Virus record (IMG/VR): IMGVR_UViG_3300021959_000397
Coordinates: 1-23,641 of that record
Strand: one strand, 5' to 3'
Source: a virus
DNA length: 23,641 nucleotides
Part shown: positions 7,431 through 19,413 of the stretch, piece by piece
Layout of the letters: each line of letters starts with the position of its first letter
Numbering within the stretch: position 1 is the first letter of the stretch
Notes under the pieces: generated by a model
Seen by the model: the letters and a program-made list of their open reading frames with translations, nothing else
Database searches by the model: none
What the model was told of the DNA's origin: nothing
Made by a program: the position numbers and the translations under genes

Positions 7431-7450
7431 AGGCAAACATAGGCAAACAT
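7431..7450 (+). repeat. Tandem 10-bp repeat over the polymerase start codon
   Basis: AGGCAAACAT occurs twice in a row (7431-7440, 7441-7450). The second copy ends in the AT of the ATG at 7449 and supplies the AGG that probably acts as ribosome site. The first copy would give AGGCAAACATA, with no start codon. A GTAAATAT sequence at 7405-7412 is a weak late-promoter candidate for this strand. Confidence 0.8.
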
Positions 7451-9149
7451 GAAAACAGAAATAGAACAGATACAATTATTATTAGAACAATTTAGAAGAC
7501 CAACTCCCGAAGGCGAAGAATATCAAAACAGACTAGCAGAAGAATTTGAAATTATACTTCAGCAACGTTTTACAGATTACTTTCTCAAAATAAGACTCAT
7601 ACTTGATCTCAACGAAGACATACCACACATGACCAGAGGCAGTGCTGGTAGCAGTTTGGTTTGCTATCTCATGGGCATAACTGATGTTGATCCAATTGAA
7701 TGGAACATACCACTAGCAAGATTTTTAAATCCATACAGAGATGACTTGCCTGATGTGGATATTGATATACCTCATCACAAACAAGAACTTGCAATGCAAC
7801 GTGTGTTTGACAAATGGCCAACACAGAGTGCTAGGATATCAAACTATGTGCTTTACAGAGAGAAGAGTGCAAAACGCGAAGCTGCCAAACGCCTTGGAGC
7901 AAAAGGCAGACTGCCAAAAGATATAGACTACGCAAAACTAGGCGTTGACGAACAAGAAGCACGTCGTATTGAACGCAAACTCATGGGCAAAAAACGTTGT
8001 ATCAGCAAACACTGTGGTGGTGTGCTGGTTTTTGATCGTCCACTACCTAAAAGCCTGTTCCGTGATGACAATCTTATCTTGCTTGACAAAAACGAAGTAG
8101 AGGATTTGGAACATCTAAAAGTAGACATACTTGCAAACAGAGGATTATCACAGTTACTAGAAATAGATCCTCACACAAGACTGGATGCATATCCAAAACA
8201 GGATGAACGTGTTGCTGATTTGTTGTGTAGAGGTGATGTACTTGGTGTAACACAAGGTGAGTCGCCAACTATGAAGAGACTGTTTCGTGCATTGCAACCA
8301 ACCGGAGTTGAGGACTGTGTGTTTGCCAGTGCATTAGTGCGTCCAGTTGCTATGGAAGGCAGACGCAAGGCCAGTTGGTTCCGTGACTGGAGTGAAAAAG
8401 GCATACAAAAGAATGCAATAGTATATGAAGATGATGCCATACATAAAATAATGAAATTGATTGGCATATCACCATACGAAGCAGATATGTATCGTCGTGC
8501 TTTTGCAAAAAAGAATGAAGAAAAGATGATGCAGTTTATGGCACGCTTAGGTGATCATCCAGACAAGCATGATATCTATGAACAAATGCAATCACTAAGT
8601 GGGTTTGGCTTGTGTAGAGCACACGCAGTTAATTTAGGCAGACTTATATGGGCATTAGCATATCACAAAGTATACAATCCAAAAGAGTTTTGGCGTGCTT
8701 GTTTAAAACACTGCCAAGGATCATATGCACGTTGGGTATATCGTAACGAAGCAAAACGTGCTGGTTGGGATCTGCGTGAACTAGGTTTTGACAACTGGAT
8801 TACAGAAGATCCAGTTGAGAGTTTCAAACAACATGGTGCATGGAATAGTCCTGGCTTTTTGCCAAACATGGGATTGCAAAATTTATTCTTAGACAAGTTT
8901 CAGTTTGCAGGTATAATTGCCGCCAGCAGAGTGTTTAAAAGTGATATAAAAAGTTATATACACTTCATCACACTAGGTGTTGGTGAAGGTCGCTATGTGG
9001 ATCTTGTTGTTGACAAACCAGTGAAATACGGTAAAGGAACTGTAGTCTTAGGAGAAGGAGAACTACACAGCAGAGACAACAGCGAGTATCTCAAAGTAAA
9101 ACGCAAATCAGTAAAAGTGATGTCAATTGACGACTATGTTCAGAGCTAA
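7449..9149 (+). CDS. C-family DNA polymerase (DnaE-like) lacking PHP domain, 566 aa
   Basis: This is a DNA polymerase III alpha-type catalytic core. Motifs run in DnaE order: TRGSAGSSLVCYLMGITDVD (62-81), then RFLNPYRDDLPDVDIDIP with metal-binding D104 and D106, LKVDILANRGL with the third aspartate D226, GVTQGESPTMKRL (266-278), and later a YEDDAIHKIM...EADMYRRAFAKKN segment and FGLCRAHAVNLGRL. The C-terminus (IIAASRVF... through VVLGEGEL) looks like the OB domain. Bacterial DnaE is about 1,160 aa and starts with a PHP domain; here the protein begins just after where PHP would end, and the finger region is shortened. It is divergent from the late operon, and its stop overlaps the radical SAM stop tail to tail. 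Full catalytic residues suggest an active polymerase; its role in replication is inferred. Confidence 0.9.
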   Translation: MKTEIEQIQLLLEQFRRPTPEGEEYQNRLAEEFEIILQQRFTDYFLKIRLILDLNEDIPHMTRGSAGSSLVCYLMGITDVDPIEWNIPLARFLNPYRDDLPDVDIDIPHHKQELAMQRVFDKWPTQSARISNYVLYREKSAKREAAKRLGAKGRLPKDIDYAKLGVDEQEARRIERKLMGKKRCISKHCGGVLVFDRPLPKSLFRDDNLILLDKNEVEDLEHLKVDILANRGLSQLLEIDPHTRLDAYPKQDERVADLLCRGDVLGVTQGESPTMKRLFRALQPTGVEDCVFASALVRPVAMEGRRKASWFRDWSEKGIQKNAIVYEDDAIHKIMKLIGISPYEADMYRRAFAKKNEEKMMQFMARLGDHPDKHDIYEQMQSLSGFGLCRAHAVNLGRLIWALAYHKVYNPKEFWRACLKHCQGSYARWVYRNEAKRAGWDLRELGFDNWITEDPVESFKQHGAWNSPGFLPNMGLQNLFLDKFQFAGIIAASRVFKSDIKSYIHFITLGVGEGRYVDLVVDKPVKYGKGTVVLGEGELHSRDNSEYLKVKRKSVKVMSIDDYVQS

Positions 9150-13587: not shown

Positions 13588-13962
13588 GGCGTAGAGCTGT
13601 TCGAAAAGATTGCAGGACGATATCCGTTTATCACTTTCTGTACCTATGCAGGTAATGAATATGTTGGTGTAATCCAAAACCGCGATGATCAAATCACTAC
13701 TATCTATGACTTTGGAAGTATCGTCGAAGATGATATCAAACGTGATTTTCTAGAACTAGCCAATCAATGGTGGTGGGAATCTAATCGCAGTATACCAATT
13801 AACATTTTTTTAAAACAAGATTGGGAAAAGTTTAAACCTTATTTAAAAACTTTCATAAACAAAGATCTACAAATTTTACTAGGGCCAAGCACAAGCCTAG
13901 CAGAACTTAGTCGTAAAAAAATAAAACGAAGAAGTATTACACTGGTTCGCAAAGTAGATTAA
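13585..13962 (+). CDS. Conserved marine-phage hypothetical protein, 125 aa
   Basis: Function unknown, but the pattern is familiar from T4-like marine phages: GVELFEKIAGRYPFITFCTY, EYVGVIQNRDDQITTIYDFG, then NQWWWESNRSIPINIFLKQD and FKPYLKTF. It is a soluble alpha/beta protein with a basic tail (RKKIKRRSITLVRKVD). AAGG stands 5 nt before the ATG, and a late promoter lies 45 bp upstream, so late expression is likely. Its 3' end overlaps the convergent mini-DnaE gene by 26 bp without any terminator, so the two transcripts would be complementary at their ends. Confidence 0.82.
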   Translation: MGVELFEKIAGRYPFITFCTYAGNEYVGVIQNRDDQITTIYDFGSIVEDDIKRDFLELANQWWWESNRSIPINIFLKQDWEKFKPYLKTFINKDLQILLGPSTSLAELSRKKIKRRSITLVRKVD

Positions 13963-14497
13963 TGTGTAGTGCAACAAGACGTGCATAACTGATTGCATGT
14001 GATTTTTTAAATACAAAACCAGCACTATTATCTCCATCCCACACAGTAGCAAATACATCAGTCCAACTCTTACGTTGTAGGTGAGATTTACCTGGACGTA
14101 TTATACTGATAAATGCTGCCATGCGTTGTATGTTGTCTGGTTGCATTGCAACTATTAGGTCATGATAGTTCCCAATATGCACTATCTGTTCGCAAAAATC
14201 TTTGTCTTGTAAACGTGTCCAGTCTGTTTCTTTTGCCAACATAGCATCATAGTGTGCTTGGTCACGTATCAGTGTGTACACACTTTGATTAAGTAAGTCT
14301 AATTTAAAATACCCACGTTGTTCTGCATACTCATAGTCTATGCTTGCACAACTGTTTATTGCATCAAATGGTACAGGAGTAACATAAACACCACTATTGT
14401 GCTTTTTTCCTTCTGCGTTCATTCTTGCCGGTGTACATTGAATCAAATCAATTATCTGTTGCCTATCAGCAAAATCTATGTCAACATCAGCACTCAT
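13937..14497 (-). CDS. Miniature DnaE-like (C-family polymerase palm) protein, 186 aa
   Basis: The protein reads like a DnaE palm stripped to its landmarks. ADVDIDFADRQQ at 3-14 matches the D-x-D catalytic motif (D6, D8). KHNSGVYVTP (32-41) matches the conserved His-Gly-Gly segment. FKLDLLNQSVYTLI gives the third aspartate (D67). MQPDNIQRMAAFISIIRPGK matches the post-palm helix and ALxRPG, and FVFKKSHAISYA (161-172) matches the KSHA motif. PHP, thumb insertions, finger extensions, OB and clamp-binding regions are absent. I recall similar short proteins in marine T4-like phages but cannot verify this. It may be a polymerase accessory or regulator, or a very small nucleotidyl transferase; a degenerate gene is unlikely because key residues are kept. 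Its ATG overlaps the end of the previous gene by 4 bp. Confidence 0.8.
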   Translation of the reverse strand: MSADVDIDFADRQQIIDLIQCTPARMNAEGKKHNSGVYVTPVPFDAINSCASIDYEYAEQRGYFKLDLLNQSVYTLIRDQAHYDAMLAKETDWTRLQDKDFCEQIVHIGNYHDLIVAMQPDNIQRMAAFISIIRPGKSHLQRKSWTDVFATVWDGDNSAGFVFKKSHAISYARLVALHINLLCEPV

Positions 14498-16093: not shown

Positions 16094-16594
16094 TCACCAT
16101 GCTTTGTTATAGTCTACAATTTCGCAGTTACGACTGATATCTTTTACAAAATAAACACATCTTGGATCATTTTTGTTTTCAACCGGTACTGCCAACATCT
16201 GTCCATTTTTAAGTTTAGGAACATACCAAGTTACGTCTTGATAAACATCAATTATTTCTATATCCAGATAGGTTGGTGTAAAACTTGTGTGTGGATTGAA
16301 TTGGAAAGTTTTAAAACCTCTATCATTGATACTAGTTAAAGGTAACATCTCAAGATCACCAACTTCTGGTTCACCAATCAGTACCTGCCAATCAATTGGC
16401 ATTTTCATCTGTGTTTCACCAATACGCAATACCAATGCTGGCGAGTTAAATGTTTCTAAAAATATTAATGGAATATAGATGTGATCTGGATTGGTTGGAT
16501 CACTGTTGTCAAAAATAGCAAAACGTAAGTCATCTATCTCTTCAGGCAATGTATCTAATTCAAACACAGTATTTTCTAGTGTTAGTATTCTCAT
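16094..16594 (-). CDS. Conserved marine-phage hypothetical protein, 166 aa
   Basis: No catalytic motif is seen. It is a beta-rich protein with well-kept segments (KMPIDWQVLIGEPEVGDLEM, LPLTSINDRGFKTFQFNP, DVTWYVPKLKNGQMLAVPV) that I recognise from many T4-like marine phages, so it is probably core to the group though uncharacterised. The start ATG overlaps the SGNH stop (ATGA). The bases around this start, ribosome site included, are duplicated at 17326-17357; see the repeat entries. That makes it the conserved right-hand border of a variable gene slot. Confidence 0.8.
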   Translation of the reverse strand: MRILTLENTVFELDTLPEEIDDLRFAIFDNSDPTNPDHIYIPLIFLETFNSPALVLRIGETQMKMPIDWQVLIGEPEVGDLEMLPLTSINDRGFKTFQFNPHTSFTPTYLDIEIIDVYQDVTWYVPKLKNGQMLAVPVENKNDPRCVYFVKDISRNCEIVDYNKAW

Positions 16595-16603
16595 AATGTC
16601 TCC
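16572..16603 (-). repeat. Repeat B: 5' end of the 166-aa gene
   Basis: A 32-bp segment holding the GGAGA ribosome site, the ATG and the first codons (MRILTLE) of the 166-aa gene. It matches 17326-17357 at 30 of 32 positions. This copy belongs to the intact gene. Confidence 0.85.
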
Positions 16604-17310
16604 ATCAAGTATTTTGCAAATAGTTCATGAGCTCGTGCTCCAGGGTGTCCGTGTATTCCATACAAATGTTCGTCCTTTGGTTGCAATCCTTGTTCTCGTG
16701 CAAAGGTTCCAAAACTAAATTTCCAAGGGTCTATAACTCCTTCATCCTTTAGTATTGTGTCTTGTAGACTACTAATAAAAGGACTATTGTATCCAACGTA
16801 TTCGCTACCTTCAAGTTTATCAACATTTGAAAATATCTTATACTTAATACCTTTACTACGTAACCAACCTATTAGCATAACTAAATCAGTACATAGTTCG
16901 GTCATTTGTGATTCTCGATTATAATGCATTAACCATTCCTTATAGTATTCACTAACTACTGGATCAACTTTTTCATGTATATTTGGTACTATTGAATCCA
17001 TTAGTCCATTAGTCCAAGATACGTTTTGCGTTGGCTTAATTTGATAAAAATGCCCATCGTTGTCGACTGCTGGCAAGTCTGGTCTCCATATTTCGCTGCG
17101 ACTTATAAAAGTCAATCCTATAAGAACTAATACATCATCTGCAATTTCATTTACATCACGTAACGTGGTTCTGATTATACGTCTATTGCAAGAACCAGGT
17201 ATAGCTTTATTAATTAGTTGTGCTTTAAGAGTTTTTGCAATGATTTCAGAATATACTGGATGACTCTTAGTAGGTACACCAAAACTACAACTATTTGAAT
17301 AAAGTATCAT
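16591..17310 (-). CDS. SGNH/GDSL-hydrolase-like protein, 239 aa
   Basis: The N-terminus MILYSNSCSFG fits block I of the SGNH superfamily, with the nucleophile probably Ser7 in NSCS. The C-terminus LYGIHGHPGARAHELFAKYL fits block V, which supplies the catalytic His. A strand VLVLIGLTFISRSEIW lies in between. Such phage proteins may deacetylate or cleave esters on sugars, but no substrate can be inferred. A TTG three codons upstream is possible; I chose the ATG at 17310, which has GGAAC 3-4 nt upstream and overlaps the mini-ORF stop. It is one of two cargo genes flanked by repeats A' and B. Confidence 0.72.
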   Translation of the reverse strand: MILYSNSCSFGVPTKSHPVYSEIIAKTLKAQLINKAIPGSCNRRIIRTTLRDVNEIADDVLVLIGLTFISRSEIWRPDLPAVDNDGHFYQIKPTQNVSWTNGLMDSIVPNIHEKVDPVVSEYYKEWLMHYNRESQMTELCTDLVMLIGWLRSKGIKYKIFSNVDKLEGSEYVGYNSPFISSLQDTILKDEGVIDPWKFSFGTFAREQGLQPKDEHLYGIHGHPGARAHELFAKYLMETL

Positions 17311-17348
17311 TTGTTCCAATCCAGTTTTTCTAGTGTCAGTATTCTCAT
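17307..17348 (-). other. 13-codon chimeric ORF at a recombination scar
   Basis: MRILTLEKLDWNK followed by TGA, with its own GGAGA ribosome site and an ATGA overlap into the SGNH gene. The first half copies the start of the 166-aa gene (MRILTLE), and the second half copies the end of UvsW (EKLEWN). It may be translated as a coupling peptide for the SGNH gene, but its makeup shows it arose by joining two distant sequences. Confidence 0.8.
17308..17332 (-). repeat. Repeat A': copy of the uvsW 3' end
   Basis: 25 bp matching 17951-17975 at 23 positions. It ends at the ATG of the SGNH gene just as the other copy ends at the ATG of the methyltransferase gene. It overlaps repeat B' by the shared TAGAAAA. 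Confidence 0.85.
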
Positions 17349-17357
17349 AATTTCTCC
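17326..17357 (-). repeat. Repeat B': copy of the 166-aa gene 5' end
   Basis: 32 bp, 30 identical to 16572-16603, placed just after the methyltransferase gene stop (17360). It carries a ribosome site and an ATG but runs into repeat A' instead of the rest of the 166-aa gene. Confidence 0.85.
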
Positions 17358-17359
17358 AA

Positions 17360-17953
17360 TTATTTTATCTTGTGTCTTTTCATTATTACGCCGTATTCAA
17401 AAAAGTCTTGTCGGACTATTTCAAACCCTTGTGCTAAAAGCCAAATAACATTTGCTCCACATTTTCCTACCCAACAGTCATTCAAGGTATGAGTATCATC
17501 AAACACGACTACTGCATCGTCAGTAAGATAAGGAAATATAGCAATCATTTGTTTCATGTGTTCTACCTGGCAGGTTTGATTTGCCAATGGTATGCCTAGT
17601 TCTTCTCTATAGAAACGTCTTTGTTTTATATCACTATCATCTAATATAAGGTCGATATCCCATATATAATCAAAATTGTCTAGATATAGACAACTAATTT
17701 TTTTATCTAATTTTGGCAATTGATTCACGCACCAATCACTGCCCCATCCAATATGCCATGTTGCTGGTAGATCTGGAAGACGTCTTTTTGGTTCATCAAT
17801 AATATCTACAGTGTGCATTTCAGCACCATGCTTTTGTGCTAATCGTGAAAAGTATTCTGTACTGCCTTCGTGTCTATCACTGCCTATTTCTAAAAACATT
17901 GTGTTATTTGTTTCACCTAAGTACTGTTCCGTATGTTTAAATGCGTCGCCCAT
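17360..17953 (-). CDS. Class I SAM-dependent methyltransferase-like protein, 197 aa
   Basis: MFLEIGSDRHEGSTEYFSRL (19-38) fits motif I of Rossmann methyltransferases. It is followed by an acidic residue at the end of strand 2 (HTVDI, D50), a CLYLDNFDY strand and VVVFDDTHTLNDCW in the motif IV region. The type recalls the Methyltransf_24 group, often found beside sugar genes; substrate unknown. The ATG at 17953 overlaps the uvsW TAA (TAATG) and has GGAG and GGAA upstream. A GTG three codons earlier is less likely. It is flanked by repeats A and B', marking it as cargo inserted between uvsW and the 166-aa gene. Confidence 0.72.
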   Translation of the reverse strand: MGDAFKHTEQYLGETNNTMFLEIGSDRHEGSTEYFSRLAQKHGAEMHTVDIIDEPKRRLPDLPATWHIGWGSDWCVNQLPKLDKKISCLYLDNFDYIWDIDLILDDSDIKQRRFYREELGIPLANQTCQVEHMKQMIAIFPYLTDDAVVVFDDTHTLNDCWVGKCGANVIWLLAQGFEIVRQDFFEYGVIMKRHKIK

Positions 17954-17975
17954 TAGTTCCACTCCAGTTTTTCTA
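17951..17975 (-). repeat. Repeat A: uvsW 3' end and next start codon
   Basis: The last codons of uvsW (EKLEWN), its TAA and the overlapping ATG. 23 of 25 bases recur at 17308-17332. Confidence 0.85.
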
Positions 17976-19413
17976 CACTGTACGGATAGTTCGCTTCTCT
18001 ATAGAATGCTTTACGTTTGGTTAGATGTCTTTTTGCAAATCTGCAAGTAGATGTTATGTCCCAGATTTGGACGTGGTCTTTGTCTTCCGCTTTACGAATA
18101 CCCCTGCCAATACTTTGTATAACCCGTACAAAACTTTTACCAGGCTCAAGAAGGACAAGATTGAAGATACGTGGCAGATTAATGCCCACGGCCGCGACAC
18201 CATATGTAGCAATAATAATTTTACCTGTCGCAGTAGCCACTTCATCGTACTCATCCTGTCTTGCTTTTGCTTTGGTTGCACCACTTACAAATACTGCATC
18301 ATCGCCCATTCTGTTTAGTAACTCTGTGCCAGCACTTATTCTATCAACCAATACCAATGTGTTACCAGTTTTATTTACTTCAATAACCAAGCCTGCAATG
18401 GTATCAAGTCTGCCTTTTTCTTCAAATAGATACTTTAATTCACTCTGATAGTTTGTAAATTCAGCATGATCAATTAACTGTACAACATTTACGTGACAGT
18501 TTGCAAGTACACCTTTTTCCTGTAGCTCACTTGCAGCAAGTTGATTTATCACTGGCCCTAAACTACAATGCAATGCTTGAAACTCATATGGCTCTTTTGG
18601 CACTGTTCCTGTTAGTCCCCAACGCAATGGTACACGTGCCATTACTCCAGTGAGCAATGTTTTAAGTGCATCTGCTTTAGCCATATGTACTTCATCAACT
18701 ATCACTGCAACTACGTCTTCTAAAAACTCATGTATTGTAATATCAACTGTTTGGTTCTTTGTGTTCTTTAGCAACACATTTAGACTTTGCCATGTGCATA
18801 TTGTATGCTTATGCCCAAACTCTTTTCTATCACCATAGAATACGCCAACATCAAGTTGCATGTTTGAATAGTCTGCTTCTGTTTGTGTAACCAAACTTTT
18901 ATTAGGAACTATTACAATACTACGTCCATAGTTTTCTACACGTTCACTTAGACTTGCAGTCATAATTGTTTTACCAGCACCAGTTGCTACTTCTTGTATG
19001 CACTGTGGATTTTTTAAGAAACTGTTTATGATCTCTACTTGATAATCACGCATCTTAATAGGAGTGCCAGAGGCAGGATGATTCTTCGGCCACATAATGT
19101 CACTGTAAGTATCTTCTGCCACTGGATCAAACTTGAATACTGTTTGGTATTCTCTGTTGTCTTGTATGTCAACATCGTAGTTGAAGTCTTCTAATATAGG
19201 AAGTATATCTGGTAACAAGTTTAAGTATGTGCTACCGCCCATTTGAAAGTATGCAACCTTACCATCCCAACGTCCTAGTCGTACTGCTGGCAAGTATCTT
19301 GCATGCGGTACATCATACTTGAAAGTGTTCACGAGTTTCTTACGAACATCAAGCTCTAGTCCTGATATCTTAAGATTTACTTCATCATTTATTATTAGTG
19401 TTGCCGTTCTCAT
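17953..19413 (-). CDS. uvsW: UvsW-type SF2 DNA helicase
   Basis: The 486 residues are close to T4 UvsW (about 500). The N-terminal substrate-recognition region includes YLPAVRLGRWDGKVAYF (40-56). The SF2 core has a Q-like MRDYQ (121-125), Walker A ATGAGKT (143-149), IVIVPNKSLVTQ, DEVH box (240-243), GLTGT, LVLVDRISAGTELL, and motif VI QSIGRGIRK near 440. UvsW unwinds branched DNA and R-loops and drives the change from origin- to recombination-dependent replication in T4. No ribosome site precedes the ATG; a promoter ends 6 nt before it, so a leaderless mRNA is predicted. Downstream genes follow with 1-bp overlap. Confidence 0.93.
   Translation of the reverse strand: MRTATLIINDEVNLKISGLELDVRKKLVNTFKYDVPHARYLPAVRLGRWDGKVAYFQMGGSTYLNLLPDILPILEDFNYDVDIQDNREYQTVFKFDPVAEDTYSDIMWPKNHPASGTPIKMRDYQVEIINSFLKNPQCIQEVATGAGKTIMTASLSERVENYGRSIVIVPNKSLVTQTEADYSNMQLDVGVFYGDRKEFGHKHTICTWQSLNVLLKNTKNQTVDITIHEFLEDVVAVIVDEVHMAKADALKTLLTGVMARVPLRWGLTGTVPKEPYEFQALHCSLGPVINQLAASELQEKGVLANCHVNVVQLIDHAEFTNYQSELKYLFEEKGRLDTIAGLVIEVNKTGNTLVLVDRISAGTELLNRMGDDAVFVSGATKAKARQDEYDEVATATGKIIIATYGVAAVGINLPRIFNLVLLEPGKSFVRVIQSIGRGIRKAEDKDHVQIWDITSTCRFAKRHLTKRKAFYREANYPYSVEKLEWN

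What the first reader, a model, noticed from the sequence alone, without database searches (positions are those of the whole stretch)
16572..17975. Recombination scar: two cargo genes stacked in one slot between uvsW and a conserved gene
Seen directly: the order is uvsW end (A), methyltransferase, B'+A' fused, SGNH gene, then B at the start of the 166-aa gene. A/A' match at 23 of 25 bases and B/B' at 30 of 32. B' and A' overlap through TAGAAAA, which is present in both parents. This is the product expected if two related phages, one carrying the methyltransferase and one the SGNH gene in the same uvsW/166-aa slot, recombined at a 7-bp microhomology so that both genes were kept. Each cargo gene then brings its own border with ribosome site, and the join leaves a 13-codon chimeric ORF. 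It marks this locus as an accessory-gene slot and shows how it grows.
Basis: partly seen in the sequence, partly recalled or inferred. Interest (0 to 1): 0.8.

Follow-up and report, generated by a model that had tools for sequence, protein, structure and literature searches.

The report
Scar from stacking two phage genes
In a marine giant-phage lineage, one spot beside a DNA-helicase gene swaps passenger genes in and out, and this sequence keeps the recombination scar left when a second passenger gene was added beside the first, a scar type that has arisen several times in related phages.

Summary
On the minus strand the order is uvsW, methyltransferase (MT), B'+A' scar, SGNH gene, 166-aa gene (B). 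I fetched 377 relatives: 118 distinct empty slots, about 80 single-cargo, about 40 longer ones. MT-only (607 bp) and SGNH-only (718 bp) forms exist, and 607+36+718=1361 bp, exactly the two-cargo slot. Left of the 7-bp join the scar equals the MT-only border (64/64 in L004); right of it, the SGNH-only uvsW tail (26/27). The scar occurs only in the window's lineage (four further contigs). uvsW-tail scars also lie between stacked cargos in L050, L297, L311 and probably L126, in other cargo combinations. Correction: flanking alleles do not fit one crossover between two genomes. SGNH looks like an insert with one homologous end (start of B) and one microhomology end. L050 is the mirror image. The 13-codon chimeric ORF has its own ribosome site and ends ATGA on the SGNH start, the overlap SGNH has with uvsW in single-cargo phages. 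It may therefore restore translational coupling (inferred). This is phage mosaicism of a known kind, unusually well resolved, in a cargo slot I did not find described.

The parts
17953..19413 (-). uvsW-like helicase, conserved gene on the 5' side of the slot; its end is border A (17951-17975)
   Evidence: ResIII/DEAD/Helicase_C Pfam hits, phrog_16 DNA helicase; 49-54% identical to helicases of Phosso, Atu_ph07, PA5oct
17360..17953 (-). cargo 1: class I SAM methyltransferase-like protein (197 aa); ATG overlaps the uvsW stop (TAATG)
   Evidence: No Pfam hit itself; a distant family member hits Methyltransf_24 at E 8.6e-5, below its cut-off; AlphaFold pLDDT 90.5, best PDB fold match methyltransferase MeT1, 6g7d, E 1.9e-6, TM 0.60
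17354..17357 (-). GGAG ribosome-binding-like site of the B' border
   Evidence: Read from the sequence; the same border precedes B in MT-only L015
17326..17358 (-). B': copy of the leader and start of the 166-aa gene, the 3' border carried by the MT cargo
   Evidence: 31/33 to 16572-16604; 64/64 match of L004 to the MT-only border of L015
17308..17332 (-). A': copy of the end of uvsW, the 5' border carried by the SGNH cargo
   Evidence: 23/25 to 17951-17975; 26/27 to the uvsW tail of SGNH-only L035
17326..17332 (-). 7-bp microhomology TAGAAAA at the join
   Evidence: 7 bp is reached by 0.2% of breakpoint pairs between the two borders when a GTAGAAAAACTGG-type tail is used; 6 bp with the L035 tail
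17307..17348 (-). 13-codon chimeric ORF MRILTLEKLDWNK*; its TGA overlaps the SGNH ATG (ATGA)
16591..17310 (-). cargo 2: SGNH/GDSL-like protein (239 aa); ends ATGA on the start of B
   Evidence: Pfam DUF6071 E 1.1e-9; SCSFG and C-terminal HGHPG motifs conserved in four homologues; the SGNH assignment is by motif only
16094..16594 (-). B: conserved 166-aa gene on the 3' side of the slot, function unknown; its start (16572-16604) is border B
   Evidence: phrog_11279 E 1.7e-47; next to uvsW in jumbo phages Phosso, Atu_ph07, Paride, GAP32, SCTP-2

Best explanation
The uvsW / 166-aa-gene junction is an accessory-gene slot in an Atu_ph07/Phosso/PA5oct-like jumbo-phage lineage. Cargo genes sit flush between the uvsW stop and the B start and normally replace each other by homologous exchange in those two conserved flanks. 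Here a donor strand carrying the end of uvsW plus SGNH plus the first codons of B paired homologously at the start of B, while its other end joined at a 7-bp microhomology to the B border behind the resident methyltransferase. Both cargos were kept, with a short B'+A' remnant. Shown: both borders, both single-cargo forms, length arithmetic, flank ancestry, spread of the scar into different allelic backgrounds. Inferred: that this was one event, its enzymology, and that the remnant is useful because the 13-codon ORF re-creates the stop-start overlap through which SGNH is translated behind uvsW in single-cargo phages.
For: Slot survey: 351 loci, 239 distinct slots, 118 empty, about 80 with 400-1000 nt, 40 longer. 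MT-only 607, SGNH-only 718, double 1361 = 607+36+718. Left half of the scar 64/64 to the MT-only border, right half 26/27 to the SGNH-only uvsW tail. B gene is MT-lineage or empty-slot type, not SGNH-lineage. SGNH is 98.9% nt identical in L307, a phage with a B gene of only about 57% aa identity, with breakpoints at the SGNH ATG and B start, so the gene moves alone. uvsW-tail scars at other stacked junctions: L050 34/34, L297 24/24, L126 18/18, L311 16/16, against a maximum score of 14 in 700 control junctions. L050 shows the mirror-image insertion into an L051-type genome. The tail is in frame with the upstream ORF in four of five clear cases. In 80 of 102 slots the first cargo ATG lies within -12..+6 of the uvsW stop.
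Against: One event cannot be told from a single crossover followed by an exchange in B. The nearest SGNH-only relatives are only 89% nt to the window's SGNH, so the direct donor was not seen; their tail has one mismatch inside the 7-bp overlap. Most other stacked junctions (about 24 of 31 distinct windows, fewer independent) carry no detectable uvsW tail, so stacking also happens without a scar or scars erode. L126 is not in frame, so coupling is not universal. In-frame count 4/5 has a chance of about 0.045 at 1/3 each, suggestive only. Cargo functions are predicted, not tested.
Confidence: 0.8

Rival explanations
1. Single reciprocal crossover between an MT phage (left) and an SGNH phage (right) at the microhomology, with later homologous exchange replacing the right flank.
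For: Junction sequence and lengths are identical under both models. Frequent flank exchange is seen: L003 equals L002 except for about the last 120 nt of uvsW.
Against: Today's right flank is not of the SGNH-phage type. L050 also has both flanks from one lineage, so an extra exchange would be needed twice.
Confidence: 0.15
2. Ancestral two-cargo arrangement, with single-cargo and empty forms produced by deletion.
For: Deletion between A and A' or B and B' would give clean single-cargo forms; the repeats needed for it are present.
Against: The scar is confined to five nearly identical records while empty and other-cargo slots are spread over the whole lineage. At least 27 unrelated cargo families use the slot.
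Confidence: 0.03
3. Mobile-element insertion (homing endonuclease or transposon) with target duplication.
For: A NUMOD3/HNH homing-type gene occupies the slot in a few relatives (F8: L080, L149, L273).
Against: No nuclease or transposase gene in the window's slot; the duplicated pieces are gene ends of differing length and allele, not equal target duplications.
Confidence: 0.02

Closest known systems
Homology-facilitated illegitimate recombination (HFIR; e.g. PMC3240628) and its proposed role in V. cholerae T6SS immunity-gene arrays (PMC5361080)
   Same: One homologous anchor plus one illegitimate end; incoming gene is added while a resident gene is kept; repeated events build an array beside a conserved gene.
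   Different: Jumbo phages rather than transforming bacteria; either flank can be the anchor; the scars carry a uvsW tail that re-forms a stop-start overlap.
Mycobacteriophage Island3/Brujita cluster I insertion (PMC3029335)
   Same: Inserted gene 68 ends with a copy of the last 18 residues of upstream gene 67, about 50 bp at DNA level; same kind of border duplication.
   Different: There the repeat allows ordinary homologous exchange; one case, one cargo. Here a microhomology join, both single-cargo forms and several independent scars are seen.
Short conserved boundary sequences in mosaic phages (cited in PMC3029335 and PMC2327257)
   Same: Conserved gene ends at both sides of a variable module act as recombination sites.
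   Different: The borders are coding ends of two conserved genes, not dedicated linker sequences.
PeSL promoter/stem-loop cassettes for modular shuffling in T4-type phages (Arbiol 2010, Comeau 2014, as cited in PMC4503421)
   Same: Repeated sequence at gene borders associated with gene shuffling.
   Different: No stem-loop (z = -0.20) and no promoter-like site at the scar.

Membership tests
Homology-facilitated illegitimate recombination product | one end joined in homologous sequence | tested here: met
   Right end lies in the first codons of B; SGNH-side identity stops there. Left end in the uvsW tail for L050
Homology-facilitated illegitimate recombination product | other end joined at little or no homology | tested here: met
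   7-bp TAGAAAA join; about 1 bp in L050 by inspection
Homology-facilitated illegitimate recombination product | RecA dependence and linear donor DNA | not testable with these tools
   needs an experiment
PeSL-mediated modular shuffling | early promoter plus stem-loop at the border | tested here: not met
Homing-endonuclease or transposon insertion | nuclease or transposase gene, equal target duplication or inverted ends | tested here: not met
Class I SAM-dependent methyltransferase (cargo 1) | Rossmann-like fold with glycine-rich motif I | tested here: met
   E21, G23, G29 invariant in 37 sequences; fold match to SAM-bound methyltransferases
SGNH/GDSL hydrolase (cargo 2) | Ser in GDS-like block I and C-terminal DxxH | tested here: inconclusive
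   SCSFG and a conserved C-terminal HGHPG segment, DUF6071; structure model too poor (pLDDT 56); no PDB relative by sequence

The most novel reading that the evidence does not exclude
The uvsW tail is a portable translational-coupling border: stacking joins are kept only when they leave a uvsW-like tail in frame whose stop overlaps the next cargo's start, so scars such as the 13-codon chimeric ORF are functional linkers through which a phage slot grows into an operon.
Probability: 0.35. Interest if true: 0.65.

Novelty: new variant of a known kind. Interest (0 to 1): 0.5.

Why it matters
How phage accessory loci grow from one gene to several is usually inferred from already eroded junctions. 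Here the product, both single-cargo forms, the empty site and several parallel cases are readable at base level in one lineage. That makes the rules testable: which end is homologous, how much microhomology, whether frame is kept. The slot also marks a set of enzymes (methyltransferases, SGNH-like, radical SAM, ClpP and others) that these phages trade.

Tried and rejected
B'-type remnants at other stacked junctions, thought by eye to be promoter pieces in L126 and L066, did not exceed background in a formal scan, so only the uvsW-tail remnant is claimed there. The uvsW-tail match in L066 (20/25, score 13) falls within background (10 of 700 controls score 13, 7 score 14) and is not counted. A stem-loop or promoter at the scar was looked for and not found. 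SGNH structure prediction from four sequences failed. A profile search of solved structures with the SGNH alignment gave only chance hits to histones. The slot in cultured phages (Phosso, Atu_ph07 with no gene between; small ORFs in Paride, GAP32, SCTP-2) shows conserved synteny; no scar is apparent in their annotation. The moraphages of PMC12619734 were checked by term search as a possible home lineage; nothing decided it.

Full report
WHAT WAS CHECKED. The described repeats are at the stated coordinates: B/B' 16572-16604 and 17326-17358 (31/33), A/A' 17951-17975 and 17308-17332 (23/25), overlapping over TAGAAAA. Shuffles of the region never gave repeats of this quality (0 of 300). Reading the minus strand, the order is uvsW, methyltransferase, B'+A', SGNH gene, 166-aa gene B. 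The chimeric ORF is ATG AGA ATA CTG ACA CTA GAA AAA CTG GAT TGG AAC AAA TGA, MRILTLEKLDWNK*. The window is its own 23.6-kb IMG/VR record; the same arrangement is in L002, a 328-kb contig, and in L001, L003 and L004.

RELATIVES. Scans of viral contigs with B (three clades), uvsW, SGNH and MT gave 377 loci, 351 with a readable uvsW-to-B slot and 239 distinct slot sequences. 118 are empty (under 150 nt, several under 20), about 80 hold one gene-sized insert and 40 are over 1 kb. Empty slots occur at 98% uvsW identity to the window (L008). Two MT-only alleles (L005/L006 and L015/L016) have a 607-bp interval, SGNH-only L035/L040 have 718 bp, and the two-cargo form 1361 bp. The difference, 36 bp, is exactly the 12 codons of the chimeric ORF up to the last uvsW-like codon. 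Scar-bearing contigs are the only ones with a B-start/uvsW-tail fusion in the collection, using a degenerate pattern that would tolerate synonymous change.

ANCESTRY OF THE TWO HALVES. In L004 the 64 nt left of the join are identical to the MT-only border of L015; in the window's allele 70 of 73 nt match. Right of the join, 26 of 27 nt match the uvsW tail of SGNH-only L035. The join uses TAGAAAA, 7 bp with the commonest tail type and 6 bp at most with L035's; overlap of 7 bp is found at 0.2% of breakpoint pairs between these borders.

WHY NOT A SIMPLE CROSSOVER. If an MT genome on the left had crossed with an SGNH genome on the right, the B gene and beyond should look like L035. They do not: B is 0.70-0.90 per bin to L035, but 90-91% overall to L005, L015 and the empty-slot L008. 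Downstream 4 kb is 91% to L015 and L008 but 79% to L035, in pieces. So the SGNH side contributes only A', SGNH and the first codons of B: one end homologous (B start), one end microhomologous. L050 shows the mirror image. There an L037-type cargo (90% nt) is inserted in a genome that is otherwise L049/L051-type on both sides (uvsW 96%, cargo 2 97%, B 94%, downstream 97%). Its left end lies in the uvsW tail and its right end joins the recipient's uvsW tail, which now forms the C-terminus of cargo 1. This pattern is that of homology-facilitated illegitimate recombination. A crossover followed by a second exchange remains possible, because flank exchange is common: L003 is identical to L002 except for about the last 120 nt of uvsW, which are L008's allele.

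SGNH MOVES ALONE. L307 carries a 98.9% identical SGNH gene behind a ClpP-type cargo and before a B gene of only about 57% aa identity. Similarity begins at the SGNH start codon and ends in the first codons of B.

RECURRENCE. I scored every junction between stacked cargo genes against 194 uvsW tails. L050 (34/34 nt), the window type (26/27), L297 (24/24), L126 (18/18) and L311 (16/16) exceed all 700 control junctions from the same contigs (maximum score 14); L066 (13) does not. These junctions join different cargo families (F6>F0, F0>F4, F6>F2, F9>F3, F4>F26), so they are separate events as far as can be told. Most other stacked junctions have no such tail.

HOW IT PROBABLY WORKS. Cargo start codons lie on or next to the uvsW stop in 80 of 102 slots: TAATG for MT, ATGA for SGNH. 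In the window SGNH starts 49 nt after the MT stop but exactly at the ATGA overlap of the chimeric ORF, which has GGAG 5 nt before its ATG. In L050, L297 and L311 the uvsW tail is fused in frame to the upstream cargo and its stop overlaps or abuts the next start. I infer that the retained tail keeps termination-reinitiation coupling for the added gene. The frame count (4 of 5; chance about 0.045) is only suggestive, and L126 is an exception. There is no promoter or stem-loop at the scar.

THE CARGO. MT belongs to the most frequent slot family (63 members), with a confident class I methyltransferase-type fold. SGNH is assigned by motif and DUF6071. At least 27 families use the slot, among them radical SAM, ClpP-type protease and NUMOD3/HNH proteins. 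A methyltransferase is found with SGNH-like genes in both orders (F0>F4 here, F1>F0 in other relatives; F1 called SGNH-like by motif only), which may point to a shared task; this is not tested.

VERDICT. A real, well-resolved recombination scar, of a known kind of event, in a slot I did not find described in the papers searched.

Noticed in passing
L307:841-1557: SGNH gene 98.9% identical to the window's in a phage whose neighbouring B gene is only about 57% aa identical: very recent gene-precise transfer between distant phages.
   Followed up: partly
L080, L149, L273 (slot between uvsW and B): A NUMOD3/HNH homing-endonuclease-like gene occupies the same slot; it could drive slot exchange in some lineages.
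   Followed up: no
L322-L337, L359, L369 slots: SGNH-like gene (by motif) followed by the same methyltransferase family (F1>F0), the reverse order of the window's pair; repeated pairing suggests a joint function.
   Followed up: no
7449-9149 (+) and 13937-14497 (-): DNA polymerase III alpha-type pieces (NTPase/finger domains; phrog_11778 DNA polymerase) lie in separate genes on opposite strands, about 5 kb apart: apparently a split replicative polymerase.
   Followed up: no
L002 vs L003: Two contigs with identical cassette and flanks differ only in about the last 120 nt of uvsW, which in L003 is the allele of empty-slot phages: a very recent exchange ending at the uvsW stop.
   Followed up: partly
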